From: Elusimicrobiota bacterium
GTDB taxonomy: Bacteria > Elusimicrobiota > Elusimicrobia > UBA1565 > UBA9628
NCBI GenBank assembly: GCA_016218575.1
Contig: JACRDN010000015.1
Location: 1-38,859, forward strand
Direction of reading: 5' to 3'
DNA length: 38,859 bases
Part shown: positions 32,898 to 38,859 of the stretch, piece after piece
Numbering within the stretch: the first letter of the stretch is position 1
Layout: every line of letters starts with the position of its first letter
Translations under genes and position numbers: made by a program
The notes under the pieces: generated by a model
Seen by the model: only the letters and a program-made list of their open reading frames with translations
Database searches by the model: none
Told to the model about the DNA's origin: nothing

Positions 32898-32973
32898 GGG
32901 CGTGTAGCTCAGCTGGGAGAGCGCCTGCATGGCATGCAGGAGGTCAGCGGTTCGATCCCGCTCACGTCCACCA
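32898..32973 (+). tRNA. tRNA-Ala (anticodon GGC)
   Basis: Cloverleaf with acceptor GGGCGTG/CACGTCC, D stem GCTC/GAGC, anticodon stem CCTGC/GCAGG around ATGGCAT (anticodon GGC), T stem GCGGG-type arm with TTCGATC, discriminator A and encoded CCA at 32971-32973. Confidence 0.94.
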
Positions 32974-33091: not shown

Positions 33092-34666
33092 ATGGGCCGG
33101 ACCTGGGCAGTCAACTTTTCCCTCCTCCTTCTCCTCCTTCCCGCGGCTTGGGTCTTGGCTCAAGAGCCGCCGCGCGAGGAGGCGAGCGCTCTCTACGAGT
33201 TGGGAACGCTCAAGCGCCGCGAGGGGCGGCCCGTCGAGTCCAAGGAGGCCTTCCTCCGCCTTCTAGAGATAACTCCCGCAAGCGCGGGGGCGCTTGAGGG
33301 TCTCGCTTTGGCCTGCCTGTCGCTTGGACAGTATGAGGAAGCCGGCCGTTATCTTGAGCAGTGGGACAGGCAGTCCCCAGGCAACAGCTACATACTGGGG
33401 CTTCTGGCGCGATCCTACTCTGGCCAGGGCCGCTACCGGGATCTGGCCTCGGTCTACGCCAAGATCAAGGAACTGGAGCCGGGAAATCCCGTGGCGGCTC
33501 GGCGCCTTGATTCCGCGATTCGGGAGCGCGGGGAGGGGATATTCCCCAAGATCAGCGCCTATAAATCCGTGGGGACGGAGGGGCTCGGCACCTCTGCTCC
33601 CTTGCAGCGCATCGTCTACGAGGGGCGCTTTGCCGGGATGGACGCCATGCCTGGGCGGGTCCGGAGCCTGAATCTGCGCTTAGGAGCTTCCGTCCGCCAG
33701 GAAGCGCAGCGCAACGACACGGCGGGCTTCACCTACTATGACTTGCTCGAGCAAACGTATACGTTTGGATTCGGGGCCAGGCCCCGAGGGGACCTGGCCC
33801 TCAACGCAGAGTACGGCCAGTCGGTGTTCACGGACCAGAAGCGAAACAGCATCGGGACCAGGCTTTTCAGCCGGGTCAAGCTTTCCTCCGAGCTGAATAT
33901 CGGGGGCGCGGGCGTGCGGATGAGCCTCAAGCGCGCGCCCAAGCTCCTGCGCGGGTCCGGCAACTCCGACTTCTTCACGATCCTGCGCGAGGCTTCGGCG
34001 CGCGTCGACTTCGATGCCTCGCGTAGGGGCTGGGACTTCGACGGGCACGGGGAGGTGAGCGAGTTCTCGGAGGGCTCGGTCTGGCAGTCCTACCGCCTGC
34101 GCGCGACCAAGGAGTTCGGCTCGCATATCGTCCAGCCGGCCTACTCCCATGGGGTTCAGGAGTTTTACGGCGCCGCGCCCGGGGGAAGGCTGGGATCAGT
34201 GGGCTACGACCGCTGGAGCCTGCGCTACCGTTGGAGAGAGGATGAGCTCGGCCAGGCAGGGCTCTCTTACGCCTACGACCTCTTCCATGACGCCAACCGC
34301 CTCCATGAGTTCTCGGCCGATCTCGCCTACCGCTTGAAGTGGTATAAGGACGTTTCCCTCACCTACGCCTACGGCTTGCTCGATTACGCGGCCGGGGCCG
34401 AGGGCTACCGCTCCACCGACGAGTTCACCAACACCTTCGGCCTCGAGTGGCGCCGCCGGCAGGCCCGGGAGCTCTGGACCTCTCTGGCCTTCGACAAGGC
34501 TTTCTACGTGGATGTGCGGGGCCATTACGAGGTGAACGCCTACAAGGCGGGTCTTGAGTGGTATCCGGGCTCGGATCTCTCCCTGCGGGGCGAGGGGAAA
34601 ATCATGCGCAGCACGGTGCGCGACGACTCCTACTCCTTCGCGCTCCAGGGTCGCTGGAGCTTTTGA
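33092..34666 (+). CDS. Exported protein: N-terminal TPR region plus predicted outer-membrane beta-barrel
   Basis: A 524-residue protein starting at the ATG just after the promoter; this start gives the signal peptide ending WVLAQ. Residues about 30-145 contain TPR-type helical pairs (ALYELGTLKRREGRPVESKE, ALACLSLGQYEEAGRYLEQW, LARSYSGQGRYRDLASVY). From about 180 to the end the sequence alternates in amphipathic strands rich in Tyr, Arg and Phe (YDLLEQTYTFGFGARPRGDL, WSLRYRWREDELGQAGLSYA, and ending YSFALQGRWSF). A C-terminal Phe is the usual end of outer-membrane barrels. TPR-plus-barrel proteins are known as polysaccharide export ports (BcsC, AlgK/AlgE-type). The role here is inferred. It overlaps the next gene by one base. 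Confidence 0.75.
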   Translation: MGRTWAVNFSLLLLLLPAAWVLAQEPPREEASALYELGTLKRREGRPVESKEAFLRLLEITPASAGALEGLALACLSLGQYEEAGRYLEQWDRQSPGNSYILGLLARSYSGQGRYRDLASVYAKIKELEPGNPVAARRLDSAIRERGEGIFPKISAYKSVGTEGLGTSAPLQRIVYEGRFAGMDAMPGRVRSLNLRLGASVRQEAQRNDTAGFTYYDLLEQTYTFGFGARPRGDLALNAEYGQSVFTDQKRNSIGTRLFSRVKLSSELNIGGAGVRMSLKRAPKLLRGSGNSDFFTILREASARVDFDASRRGWDFDGHGEVSEFSEGSVWQSYRLRATKEFGSHIVQPAYSHGVQEFYGAAPGGRLGSVGYDRWSLRYRWREDELGQAGLSYAYDLFHDANRLHEFSADLAYRLKWYKDVSLTYAYGLLDYAAGAEGYRSTDEFTNTFGLEWRRRQARELWTSLAFDKAFYVDVRGHYEVNAYKAGLEWYPGSDLSLRGEGKIMRSTVRDDSYSFALQGRWSF

Positions 34667-35514
34667 TGAAGAGGACTCTGGGACGCGCCGGGGCGGCCCT
34701 TCTCCTGGCCTGGGGGGTTGGCTACTATTGGAACCGCCGCCCGCTCTCCCCGGAGGCCGCGCGGCTTCTTTGGGAGAGGAGCCTTCTTCTGTACGAGCAG
34801 GGCCAATACCCTTCCGCCTTGTCTCGCGCGCGCAGGCTGCTGCGCTCCGACCCCAAGGAGCCCCGCTACCTCAAGCACGAGGCGCGCCTCCTGCACAAGC
34901 TCGGCCGCGTCGAAGGCGAGCTTGCCGCGTGGCAGGCCTTTATGTCTGTCTCCCCGGCGCCCCAGGAGGCCTGCCCCGACATTAACCGCGTCTATGAGAA
35001 GCTCGATCGCGCGGAGGAATCCTTCGAGGCCTATAAGATTTGCCTCGCGCGAGAACCGCAGAACGCGGATCTCGCTTTCTTCGTGGCCCGGGGCCTTGCG
35101 GCGCGCTCGCAATACGCCGAGGCCGAGAAGGCCTACCGCCGGATACTCAAGGAGGCTCCCTCCTACTCGGACGCGACCTTGGGAATCGCGCGCATCCGCC
35201 TGTCCCAGGGGCGGCTGGCGGAGGCCGCGGCCTTGTCCGATTCGGTTCTCAAGAAAAACGCCGCCAACGCGGACGGGCTTCTCCTGCGCGCCCAGATCGC
35301 CTTGCGCCGGCAAGACAACAAGACGGCCAAGGAGAGCCTTGTTTCGGCGATCAATGCGAGTCCAGACTACGCCGACCTCTACCGGATATTGGGCCGGGTC
35401 TATGACGCTCAAGGCGACGAGGCGGGCGCCCTCAAGGTTTACTTAAAGCTCGTGGAGCTCGAGCCGGACAACGCCTCGGCCCACCGGCGCTTGAGCGCCT
35501 TGCGCGCTCGGTGA
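34666..35514 (+). CDS. Membrane-anchored TPR protein, paralogue 1
   Basis: A 282-residue protein. The ATG overlaps the barrel-gene stop (TGATG). The N-terminus (MKRTLGRAGAALLLAWGVGY) is a signal-anchor. The rest consists of about seven TPR units, e.g. LLYEQGQYPSALSRARRLL, ARGLAARSQYAEAEKAYRRI and LGRVYDAQGDEAGALKVYLK. It aligns with the following gene through the whole repeat array, including CPDINRVYEKLDRAEESFEA versus CPALGDSYERSGRGDFALDA. TPR proteins bind other proteins; here it probably bridges the barrel and the inner-membrane enzyme. That bridge is inference. Confidence 0.78.
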   Translation: MKRTLGRAGAALLLAWGVGYYWNRRPLSPEAARLLWERSLLLYEQGQYPSALSRARRLLRSDPKEPRYLKHEARLLHKLGRVEGELAAWQAFMSVSPAPQEACPDINRVYEKLDRAEESFEAYKICLAREPQNADLAFFVARGLAARSQYAEAEKAYRRILKEAPSYSDATLGIARIRLSQGRLAEAAALSDSVLKKNAANADGLLLRAQIALRRQDNKTAKESLVSAINASPDYADLYRILGRVYDAQGDEAGALKVYLKLVELEPDNASAHRRLSALRAR

Positions 35515-36359
35515 GAAAGCCGGGGGGCGTCTTTCAAGCGGCCCTTCTCGCCCTCTTCTATGCTGTGGTGTACCGGGCGCCGGAGAGCCGCTCCTTGCCC
35601 CCCGAAAAATTGCGGGAAACCCTTAAAGCCCTGGCCTTGGCGGAGGCCAAGGAAGAGCACCGCAAGGTCCTGGAGCTTTCCCGCTTCCTTCTGCGCCGTT
35701 ATCCCGACAACGACCGCTACATTTTCAAGGAGGCCTCGGCCCTCGATCGCCTGGATCCTGGAGGGGCCGCGGCCTCTTGGGAGCGTTATTTCCAGATTTC
35801 TCCGGACCCCGTGGACGCCTGTCCGGCCCTGGGGGATTCCTACGAGCGGAGCGGCCGCGGGGATTTTGCCCTGGACGCGCATCGCCGCTGCCTGGCCCTG
35901 CAGCCCCGGAACACAGATTTGATTTTCTATCTGGCCCATTTCCTGGAGCGCCATCGCAAATTCGACGAGGCAGAGGCGCTTTACCGGCGCGGGCTCGCCT
36001 TGTCTGCGGAGTACGCGGACATGCGGCTGGGGCTGGCCAGGATCGCCTTTCGGCGCGACCGGGATCTGTCATCGGCGCGCCGCTGGGTAGGGGAGGTATT
36101 GGCCGTGAGTCCCGATCAAGCCGACGCGCTTGTCCTGTCGGCGCGCCTTGACCTCTACCGCCGCGAATTCGCCCGCGCCCGAAAGACCTTGGAGAAAGGA
36201 CTGGCCCTCCACCCGAAATATCTCGAGTTTTATTGGGGACTGGCCGCGGTCTGGCGGGAGCTCGGCGACCGAGAGAAGGCGGGCCGCTACTCCGCCATGG
36301 CCCGCTCCCTGAGGCGGGCCGGAGAGTCGGGGCCGCGGGGCTTGCAGGCGCCATGGTAG
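35511..36359 (+). CDS. Membrane-anchored TPR protein, paralogue 2
   Basis: A 282-residue protein, the same length as its neighbour. It starts at GTG overlapping the previous stop (GTGA). An N-terminal hydrophobic segment (VFQAALLALFYAVVYRA) acts as signal-anchor, followed by TPR units such as YERSGRGDFALDAHRRCLAL, LAHFLERHRKFDEAEALYRR and LAAVWRELGDREKAGRYSAM. It contains CPALGDSYE where the paralogue has CPDINRVYE. Its last 7 nt overlap the next gene, indicating tight translational coupling. No enzymatic motif is present. Confidence 0.78.
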   Translation: MRKPGGVFQAALLALFYAVVYRAPESRSLPPEKLRETLKALALAEAKEEHRKVLELSRFLLRRYPDNDRYIFKEASALDRLDPGGAAASWERYFQISPDPVDACPALGDSYERSGRGDFALDAHRRCLALQPRNTDLIFYLAHFLERHRKFDEAEALYRRGLALSAEYADMRLGLARIAFRRDRDLSSARRWVGEVLAVSPDQADALVLSARLDLYRREFARARKTLEKGLALHPKYLEFYWGLAAVWRELGDREKAGRYSAMARSLRRAGESGPRGLQAPW

Positions 36360-38722
36360 GGCTCGTCGTTTTCCTCTGGCTTCTGTTCTGCTTGGCGACC
36401 TCGGCCTATTGCCTGTTCGTCCATGTCCCCTTCATCTGGACGAACTTCATCCAGCTGCATCCCTTCCCCTGGCTCGACTTTTTTGCGCGCCGCCACGCCT
36501 GGATTTACGGGGGGCTTTGGATATTGAGCGCGGCGGTATTCACGGGCCGCCGCGAGAGTTGGGGCGGCCCCTTAGGGGCGGCCGTGGCCGTTCTTGGACT
36601 TCTCGGCGCGCTTTTGGCCGCCTTGCCCGGGCTTTCAAGCCTGCGCCCGGGCTCCGGGGCCTTGGCCTTGAGCTGCGCCGCCTGGGCGCCCTTCCTGGTC
36701 TTGGCCGCGGCCGCGGCCTGGGAGAGGGGGAGGCCTTTTCGGGCCCTGGAGGATCCCGCTCTTGATCGGCGCCTCCTGCGCGCGGCCCTGCTCGCCGCGT
36801 TTCTCTGCGCCTCGGGCTTCGGCGCGGGGGCAGGTCTGGCTTTGTCCATGGAGCTCAAGCCCTTCTGCCTCGCTTGGGCCTGGAGCTTGAGCCTCCACGC
36901 CCTTTTGTTCTTGGCGGCAGCCAGCGCGGTCTCTCTGACGAAGGGGTTTGCTCATCTAGCCGCGGCTCCCGGAGCCGCGGCATTCTGCCTGTCTCGGCTT
37001 CTCGCGGCCGGGGTCTTGGCGTCGTTTTTTGCGCGCGTCGTGCTGGCCTCGGTTCCGTTTACGGGCTGGCCGGCGTGGGCGGTTTCCATCTCCCTGACTT
37101 TGGCGCTGACGGTCGCAGCCGAGGCCTTGACCCCGCCTCCGGGGGCGATTTCTTGGGCTCTCGCGGCCGGGCTCGGGGCCTGGGCGAGCCTTGAGCTCCC
37201 TCTCATGGATTGGAACGGGGTTCTGCAGGCTTGCGCGGTTATGGGGGTTTGGTGGGGAGCGGCCGCCTTGGCCTATCAGACAGGGCCAAGGCGGCAAGAG
37301 GGGCCGGGGCACTCGTGGGCGCTCTGCCTGGCCTTCTTGGTTTTCATCGCGATATTCCAGGCGGAGCGCTTATCCCGCTACGACCTCGACCGCCTTCTGG
37401 CCGAGGATCGGGTGCGCTGGAGCGCTCTCCTGGAGCGCTACGCCGCGCGAGAGCCCTCCTTTCGCTTGGCCCGGCGGATTCTGTCGGCGCGCAAGGAGGG
37501 GGAACTCTTCGCTCTCATGCAGCGGCACACCAATATCCCCCGCGACCTTCCCACCCCCGCGGTGGAGATTCGCTTGAGCGAGGCATTGGCTCCCTCCAGC
37601 GGGTTCAAACCCCATATCTTCATCATCGTGGTCGACAGCCTGCGCCGGGATTATTTGAGGCCGTATAACCCCGCGGTCCGGTTCACGCCCGAGATTTCCC
37701 GTTTCGCGGCCGAGAGCTCGGTATTTACCAACGCCTTCACCCGCTACGGGGCCACGGGCCTCTCCGAGCCGTCCATTTGGACCGGAGCCATGATCCCGCA
37801 CAAGCAGTATCCGGAGCCCTTCCAGCCTCTCAACTCCCTTCAAAAGCTGCTGCGCCTGGAGGGTTACCGCGGGTTCATCGTCCGGGACGCCATTCTTGAT
37901 GCCATCGTGCAAAAGACTCCCGAGATGCGCGACTTGACTGATGGGCGGAGGCAGGACCGTCTCTGCCCGGAGCTTGCCTCCCTCGGGAAACGCTTGGACG
38001 AGCTCGGGCGGCCCAAGGCCCCGCTTTTCTTTTACGCCCAGCCCCAGGATCTTCATGTCTCGATGATCAACCGGGAGGGGCGCTCGCTCGCGGCCGGTGC
38101 TGCGGGCGGCTACGCGGGCTTCGACGCGGCTTACGCCAGCCGAATGCGCGGGCTGGACCGCTGTTTCGGGGCTTTCATCGCGGACTTGAAGCGCCGGGGG
38201 CTCTACGGGGACAGCATCGTCGTGCTCGCCTCGGATCATGGGGATTCCTTGGGAGAGGGGGGGCGCTGGGGCCATGCCTACACGCTGTTCCCGGAAATCG
38301 TCAAGATCCCGCTCCTCATCCATTTGCCGGCGCGGTTCCGGGGCTTGTACCGGGACGCGCGCGCCGCGGCATTCTTGACCGATGTGACGCCCACGTTGTA
38401 CGCCCTCCTGGGCCATTCCGTGGCCAAGAACCGGCTTTTCGGAAGGCCGCTGTTTACGCCGACCAAGGGCGAGCATGACCGCTATCTCGAGGATTATTAC
38501 CTCCTGGCCTCGAGCTACGGGTCGGTGTACGCGCTCCTCATGGGCAACGGGTGCTACCTTTATATAGCCGATGGGATCAACGGCGCGTATTACTATTACG
38601 ATTTAGCCGCGGATTCGCAGGGAAACCGCAATCTGTTCACCCCGGACAGGGCCCGGGAGCTCAACCCCCGCGTCGCGGAGGAAATCCGGCGCATCGCGGC
38701 GTTCTACCGCTTCCCGGGCTAA
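36353..38722 (+). CDS. Polytopic membrane enzyme of the alkaline-phosphatase/sulfatase superfamily
   Basis: A 789-residue protein. The first about 345 residues hold some eight to ten membrane helices. A short linker leads to an extracytoplasmic hydrolase domain that begins HIFIIVVDSLRRDYLRPYN, with metal ligand Asp428. GATGLSEPSIWTG follows; Thr468 or Ser471 is the likely nucleophile. ASDHGDSLGEGG carries the metal ligands Asp628 and His629, and HAYTLFPEIVKIPLLIH follows. The layout resembles LtaS or phosphoethanolamine transferases such as EptA/YejM, so transfer of a phosphate-linked head group or sulfate hydrolysis at the membrane surface is plausible. The C/SxPxR maturation motif of true sulfatases is broken (SEPSI). 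It is the last gene of the operon. Confidence 0.85.
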   Translation: MVGLVVFLWLLFCLATSAYCLFVHVPFIWTNFIQLHPFPWLDFFARRHAWIYGGLWILSAAVFTGRRESWGGPLGAAVAVLGLLGALLAALPGLSSLRPGSGALALSCAAWAPFLVLAAAAAWERGRPFRALEDPALDRRLLRAALLAAFLCASGFGAGAGLALSMELKPFCLAWAWSLSLHALLFLAAASAVSLTKGFAHLAAAPGAAAFCLSRLLAAGVLASFFARVVLASVPFTGWPAWAVSISLTLALTVAAEALTPPPGAISWALAAGLGAWASLELPLMDWNGVLQACAVMGVWWGAAALAYQTGPRRQEGPGHSWALCLAFLVFIAIFQAERLSRYDLDRLLAEDRVRWSALLERYAAREPSFRLARRILSARKEGELFALMQRHTNIPRDLPTPAVEIRLSEALAPSSGFKPHIFIIVVDSLRRDYLRPYNPAVRFTPEISRFAAESSVFTNAFTRYGATGLSEPSIWTGAMIPHKQYPEPFQPLNSLQKLLRLEGYRGFIVRDAILDAIVQKTPEMRDLTDGRRQDRLCPELASLGKRLDELGRPKAPLFFYAQPQDLHVSMINREGRSLAAGAAGGYAGFDAAYASRMRGLDRCFGAFIADLKRRGLYGDSIVVLASDHGDSLGEGGRWGHAYTLFPEIVKIPLLIHLPARFRGLYRDARAAAFLTDVTPTLYALLGHSVAKNRLFGRPLFTPTKGEHDRYLEDYYLLASSYGSVYALLMGNGCYLYIADGINGAYYYYDLAADSQGNRNLFTPDRARELNPRVAEEIRRIAAFYRFPG

Positions 38723-38796
38723 GGGCTCGCAATGGAATAATATGACCAACTGGCAGGCCCAGATTCGAGTTGATTTCGAGGCGCGAGGAGGGAGCA

Positions 38797-38859
38797 ATGC
38801 CGCAGCGCATTGTGACCAACGAGCAACGAAGAAATCGGCCGAAGATGGGCCTGCCTGAA
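38797..38859 (+). CDS. Start of a gene cut by the window end
   Basis: An ATG with AGGAGGG 4 nt upstream opens a frame MPQRIVTNEQRRNRPKMGLP that runs off the window at codon 21. The basic, hydrophilic start gives no function. A competing frame from ATG 38742 closes at 38856-38858 and has no ribosome-binding site. Confidence 0.5.
   Translation, partial: MPQRIVTNEQRRNRPKMGLPE

What the first reader, a model, noticed from the sequence alone, without database searches (positions are those of the whole stretch)
33092..38722. Four-gene overlapping operon: TPR-barrel, two twin TPR proteins, membrane phosphotransferase/sulfatase
Every junction overlaps (1, 4 and 7 nt). The parts span both membranes: outer-membrane barrel with periplasmic TPR, two anchored TPR proteins, and a polytopic LtaS/EptA-like enzyme. 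This fits an envelope polymer modification or export apparatus in which the TPR proteins bridge the two membranes. I know no described system with exactly this composition.
Basis: partly seen in the sequence, partly recalled or inferred. Interest (0 to 1): 0.62.

Follow-up and report, generated by a model that had tools for sequence, protein, structure and literature searches.

The report
Polysaccharide export and decoration gene cassette
Four overlapping genes in an uncultured Elusimicrobiota bacterium look like the envelope-side half of a machine that makes, chemically decorates and exports a sugar polymer; the polymer-making half sits elsewhere in the same genome, split off from an arrangement that relatives still have in one piece.

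Summary
The four ORFs are real, with overlaps of 1, 4 and 7 nt. A (33092-34666) is a periplasmic TPR plus outer-membrane beta-barrel protein (best fold match: cellulose exporter BcsC). B and C are two TPR proteins, 33% identical. D (36353-38722) is a polytopic alkaline-phosphatase-superfamily enzyme with Thr at the nucleophile position, as in EptA.

The set is incomplete as seen: the contig ends 137 bp after D. In relatives the order is REC1-A-B-D-REC2-HEAT-GT2(PgaC-like)-polysaccharide deacetylase, with a single B. In this genome REC1-REC2-HEAT-GT2-deacetylase sits on another contig with the A-B-D slot missing, so the window carries the displaced export/modification half of a synthase-dependent exopolysaccharide locus.

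Across 341 Elusimicrobiota genomes, 23 of 25 with A also have the GT2 (47/341 overall). B-D is an optional but inseparable pair, found alone in some genomes and beside a REC-HEAT-GT2 module in a Bdellovibrio.

Best reading: a PgaC/BcsC-type polymer system in which D transfers a phospho-group (probably phosphoethanolamine from lipid) onto the polymer, analogous to BcsG, with B/C as its scaffold. The chemistry is inferred. New variant of a known kind.

The parts
33092..34666 (+). Gene A: signal peptide, about 3-4 TPRs (residues ~30-147), then outer-membrane beta-barrel (residues ~148-523); proposed export channel
34666..35514 (+). Gene B: TPR protein with short N-terminal hydrophobic stretch, proposed periplasmic scaffold for D
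   Evidence: overlaps A by 1 nt
35511..36359 (+). Gene C: second TPR protein, paralogue of B (33% identity); relatives have only one B/C gene
36353..38722 (+). Gene D: polytopic membrane region (residues 1-~340) plus alkaline-phosphatase-superfamily domain (420-789); conserved D428, T468 (nucleophile position), H568, D628, H629, H641
38723..38859 (+). Left part of a ~270-bp multicopy palindromic (MITE-like) element inserted at D's TAA stop codon; the contig ends inside it
32898..32973 (+). tRNA-Ala (GGC) directly upstream of the cassette (context only)

Best explanation
The cassette is the envelope-side half of a synthase-dependent exopolysaccharide system. A PgaC-like GT2 on another contig (C17), with a membrane HEAT partner and two stand-alone receiver proteins as likely regulators, polymerises a hexosamine-type polymer and passes it across the inner membrane. 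A deacetylase-like protein trims it. D takes a phospho-group from a membrane lipid (most likely phosphoethanolamine from PE) onto Thr468 and transfers it to the polymer. B and C, anchored in the inner membrane, hold D at the polymer path. A's periplasmic TPRs receive the polymer and its barrel exports it. Shown: gene structure, domain content, invariant active-site residues, split-locus synteny and co-occurrence with the GT2. Inferred: donor, acceptor, polymer identity and physical complex.
For: REC1-A-B-D-REC2-HEAT-GT2-deacetylase is contiguous in G011, G039 and G009; G024 has the same genes with the deacetylase moved next to D. In the window's genome, REC1-REC2-HEAT-GT2-deacetylase lies on C17:80938-85753 with flanks syntenic to G011 and the A-B-D slot missing; each is the only strong match. 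In 341 phylum genomes, A and GT2 co-occur in 23 of 25 A-bearing genomes (GT2 in 47 in all; Fisher 1.3e-20), and D and GT2 in 8 of 10 (2.7e-6); not corrected for phylogeny. In 21 of those 23, A and GT2 share a contig within about 10 kb. B-D sits beside REC-HEAT-GT2 in Bdellovibrio sp. qaytius. The GT2 profile matches PgaC at E 2.7e-27. A's model has BcsC as top fold match, E 1.9e-10. D's T468 aligns with the fGly cysteine of phosphonate monoester hydrolase and with the catalytic Thr of EptA. Precedent: BcsG transfers phosphoethanolamine from lipid to cellulose (PMC11379886).
Against: A occurs without B-D (G041 and 19 genomes of family f14), and B-D without A (G026, G035, G037, G043, second copy in G039), so the full set is not obligatory. 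G035 and G037 have D but no GT2 at the cut-off used. D's highest-scoring sequence matches are soluble sulfatases, not transferases. BcsG itself matches D only weakly. D's structure prediction failed (pLDDT 39). No data bear on donor or acceptor.
Confidence: 0.66

Rival explanations
1. D and its TPR partner B/C decorate a lipid or lipopolysaccharide (as EptA does lipid A) and merely share a transcript with the exporter A.
For: The EptA match is better than the BcsG match (E 4e-7 against 0.032); B-D stands alone in several genomes without A.
Against: B-D lies inside the GT2 operon in G009, G011, G024 and G039, directly before REC2-HEAT-GT2 in G234, and beside GT2 in a Bdellovibrio. A position between exporter and synthase argues for the polymer as target.
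Confidence: 0.17
2. D is an LtaS-like polymerase or adds glycerol-phosphate, so the product is a teichoic-acid-like or glycerol-phosphate-decorated polymer.
For: LtaS is among D's matches; a different family of the phylum (f14) carries other Thr-nucleophile AP-superfamily enzymes next to A and GT2.
Against: The PgaC-like synthase already provides polymerisation; D's motif follows EptA (SDHGDSLGE) rather than the f14 enzymes.
Confidence: 0.12
3. D is a classical sulfatase or phosphodiesterase that removes groups from an environmental or self polymer.
For: Highest-scoring families are sulfatases.
Against: The C/S-x-P-x-R signature is absent: TGLSEPS has Thr at the nucleophile position, invariant in 10 Elusimicrobiota homologues and in the Bdellovibrio one; it is a polytopic membrane protein.
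Confidence: 0.05

Closest known systems
E. coli Bcs system with BcsG (phosphoethanolamine cellulose)
   Same: TPR plus outer-membrane barrel exporter, inner-membrane GT2, polytopic AP-superfamily transferase with a large periplasmic domain
   Different: The synthase is PgaC-like, no BcsB or BcsZ was recognised in the locus, a deacetylase-like gene instead; a dedicated TPR protein B/C overlaps D; REC and HEAT proteins; D resembles BcsG only weakly
PgaABCD (PNAG synthesis and export)
   Same: PgaC-like GT2, TPR-barrel exporter, deacetylase-like gene
   Different: A is not in the PgaA family by HMM (25.6 bits against a cut-off of 366.65); the deacetylase shows no match to PgaB; PgaABCD has no phosphotransferase; no PgaD recognised
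NfrA/NfrB (N4 glycan receptor pathway) and TPR-YaiO loci
   Same: TPR plus outer-membrane barrel with an inner-membrane GT2; TIGR04390 YaiO barrels sit next to the same REC-HEAT-GT2 module in other phyla
   Different: A's barrel does not match the YaiO model; NfrB carries a c-di-GMP domain (PMC8669472); no AP-superfamily enzyme or HEAT protein is described there
EptA phosphoethanolamine transferase
   Same: Thr at the nucleophile position, SDHG(D/E)SLGE motif, membrane-anchored
   Different: Different and longer membrane region; operon context of polymer synthesis and not of lipid A

Membership tests
Synthase-dependent exopolysaccharide system (Bcs/Pga type) | Inner-membrane processive GT2 synthase | tested here: met
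   GT2 at C17:82808-84250; PgaC_IcaA is the best NCBIfam model for its orthologue (E 3.6e-38, below the equivalog cut-off); E. coli PgaC E 2.7e-27. It is on another contig than the window.
Synthase-dependent exopolysaccharide system (Bcs/Pga type) | Periplasmic TPR plus outer-membrane beta-barrel exporter | tested here: met
   TPRs; 20-strand region in a medium-confidence model, BcsC top match E 1.9e-10 but low TM
Synthase-dependent exopolysaccharide system (Bcs/Pga type) | Secretion of a polymer | not testable with these tools
   uncultured genome, no biochemistry
PgaABCD | PgaA, PgaB and PgaC orthologues | tested here: not met
   A far below the PgaA cut-off; deacetylase has no PgaB match
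AP-superfamily phosphoethanolamine transferase (EptA/BcsG) | Ser/Thr nucleophile and metal-ligand Asp/His set | tested here: met
   T468, D628, H629, H641 and H568 invariant and aligned to EptA
AP-superfamily phosphoethanolamine transferase (EptA/BcsG) | Family HMM above its cut-off | tested here: not met
   NCBIfam phosphoethanolamine transferase models score 11-19 bits against cut-offs of 500-1200
AP-superfamily phosphoethanolamine transferase (EptA/BcsG) | Transfer of phosphoethanolamine | not testable with these tools
   needs an assay
Formylglycine sulfatase | C/S-x-P-x-R active-site signature | tested here: not met
   TGLSEPS at the aligned position
YaiO outer-membrane family (TIGR04390) | Match to the YaiO barrel HMM | tested here: not met
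   no match at E 0.1; E. coli YaiO not matched by A's profile

The most novel reading that the evidence does not exclude
B-D is a portable 'TPR-guided phosphotransferase' pair that plugs into different PgaC-like (REC-HEAT-GT2) exopolysaccharide systems in unrelated phyla, making phospho-modified hexosamine polymers of a kind not yet described, and here works in trans after the locus was split.
Probability: 0.35. Interest if true: 0.65.

Novelty: new variant of a known kind. Interest (0 to 1): 0.5.

Why it matters
Phosphorylation of an exported polysaccharide after synthesis is well documented for cellulose (BcsG). A PgaC-like system with its own membrane phosphotransferase and a dedicated TPR partner would widen the known chemistry of biofilm polymers, in a phylum whose surface polymers are little studied. 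The split locus, together with B-D being optional and found in another phylum, makes modularity of polymer modification testable. The REC-HEAT-GT2 module is widespread, and I found no paper describing it in the library searched.

Tried and rejected
The search for related loci with D alone found nothing in genome contigs. VIA-align of A listed only TPR matches because that domain filled the list. A tree of B/C could not tell whether the duplication is recent (no well-supported forks). Rejected: sulfatase (signature absent); a free-standing four-gene system (synteny); REC1-REC2 adjacency as the ancestral state (the cassette lies between them in genomes of two families, G009 and G011 of f1 and G039 of f2, and A alone does in G041 of f2). 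Literature searches for a HEAT-GT2-response regulator-YaiO locus found nothing relevant; the library omits most subscription journals.

Full report
OBSERVATION. The four ORFs are present as described, with overlaps of 1, 4 and 7 nt. They are conserved as proteins: homologues of A and D from other genera align over full length at 31-42% identity.

ANATOMY. A has a signal peptide, TPRs at about residues 30-147 and then 20 predicted strands. Its model (mean pLDDT 73, five sequences) matches E. coli BcsC best (Foldseek E 1.9e-10, probability 1.00), but with low TM because the barrel is not well closed. It is outside the PgaA and YaiO families by HMM. B and C are TPR proteins with a short N-terminal hydrophobic stretch, 33% identical to each other; the hydropathy scan did not reach its threshold for either, so 'anchored' is a reading of the sequence. 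D has hydrophobic segments through residues 1-341 and a Sulfatase-type domain from 420. Profile alignment to phosphonate monoester hydrolase puts T468 on the formylglycine cysteine, and multiple alignment puts it on the catalytic Thr of EptA; D628, H629 and H641 match EptA as well. D428, T468, H568, D628, H629 and H641 are invariant in ten homologues and in a Bdellovibrio one. The sulfatase signature C/S-x-P-x-R is absent.

GENOMIC CONTEXT. Orthologues of D were found in 10 of 341 genomes of the phylum. Every one with sequence upstream has a TPR gene directly before D, overlapping by 4 nt, or by 7 nt in the window. In G011, G039 and G009 the locus reads REC1-A-B-D-REC2-HEAT-GT2-deacetylase on one strand; in G024 the deacetylase follows D and REC2-HEAT-GT2 lies a little further on. 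Domain searches identify receiver domains, a HEAT protein, a PgaC-like GT2 and a weakly matching polysaccharide deacetylase. In the window's own genome the GT2, HEAT and deacetylase orthologues lie on contig C17, in the order REC1-REC2-HEAT-GT2-deacetylase with overlapping ends between REC1, REC2, HEAT and GT2, and with neighbours upstream that match those of G011. The A-B-D block that separates REC1 from REC2 in relatives is missing there and is what the window carries. C17 (310,862 bp) continues far to both sides of that junction. The locus is thus split in this genome or, less likely, misassembled. A is preceded by a tRNA-Ala gene on C15, and the other genes of the window are not polysaccharide genes by inspection.

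TAXON. The G009 and G041 contigs have the same lengths and gene positions as Elusimicrobia records JACRNU010000055.1 and MGTY01000114.1, which places the window in Elusimicrobiota.

CO-OCCURRENCE. Of 341 genomes of the phylum 25 have A, 47 have the GT2 and 10 have D. A and GT2 share 23 genomes (Fisher 1.3e-20), D and GT2 share 8 (2.7e-6), A and D share 5 (2.8e-4). These values ignore phylogeny; 19 of the A genomes belong to one family (f14). In 21 of the 23 shared genomes A and GT2 are on one contig within about 10 kb. G041 has REC1-A-REC2-HEAT-GT2-deacetylase without B-D, so B-D is optional. B-D also occurs alone, and beside REC-HEAT-GT2 in Bdellovibrio sp. qaytius. In family f14 other Thr-nucleophile AP-superfamily enzymes flank A and GT2, which looks like repeated recruitment of this enzyme class to the same polymer system. 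Beyond the phylum, REC-HEAT-GT2 loci often carry a TPR-YaiO barrel gene next to the GT2.

MECHANISM. Shown: gene order, domains, conserved active site, association with a polysaccharide synthase. Inferred: that the polymer is hexosamine-based (from the PgaC likeness and a deacetylase-like gene), that D moves a phospho-group from lipid to polymer (by analogy with EptA and BcsG; [quoted passage not shown] Phosphoethanolamine is the likelier donor group but phosphoglycerol is not excluded.

COMPARISON AND NOVELTY. The general kind, a synthase-dependent exopolysaccharide system with a TPR-barrel exporter, is known (PMC7112194; NfrA/NfrB in PMC8669472). The combination of a PgaC-like synthase, receiver and HEAT proteins, an EptA-like membrane enzyme and a dedicated TPR partner was not found in the papers searched. 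I file it as a new variant of a known kind and not as a member of Pga, Bcs or Nfr, since defining family tests were not met.

Noticed in passing
window 38723-38859; G000 C14:15421-15690, C10, C19, C18, C5, C17: About 270-bp near-perfect palindromic, MITE-like element; 12 near-identical copies and 47 matches in the genome, several at contig ends. It is flanked by TAA; in the window the TAA is D's stop codon, so the insertion left D intact.
   Followed up: partly
window 32898-32973: tRNA-Ala(GGC) 118 bp upstream of A; with the repeat element after D, the displaced cassette is bounded by a tRNA gene and a likely mobile element.
   Followed up: no
L196:5977-12840; L199:7463-10800; L200:3245-6708; L115:3879-12034: In another Elusimicrobiota family, different Thr-nucleophile AP-superfamily membrane enzymes (about 610-800 aa) flank A and the GT2.
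   Followed up: partly
L077-L154: A receiver-HEAT-GT2 module recurs in Acidobacteria, Proteobacteria, Bdellovibrio, Bacteroidetes and Bacilli, often followed by a TPR-YaiO barrel gene in Gram-negatives.
   Followed up: partly
L034:2036-5118: In G024 the deacetylase gene is directly behind D and a PAS-domain gene on the other strand separates it from REC2-HEAT-GT2: another rearranged version of the locus.
   Followed up: no
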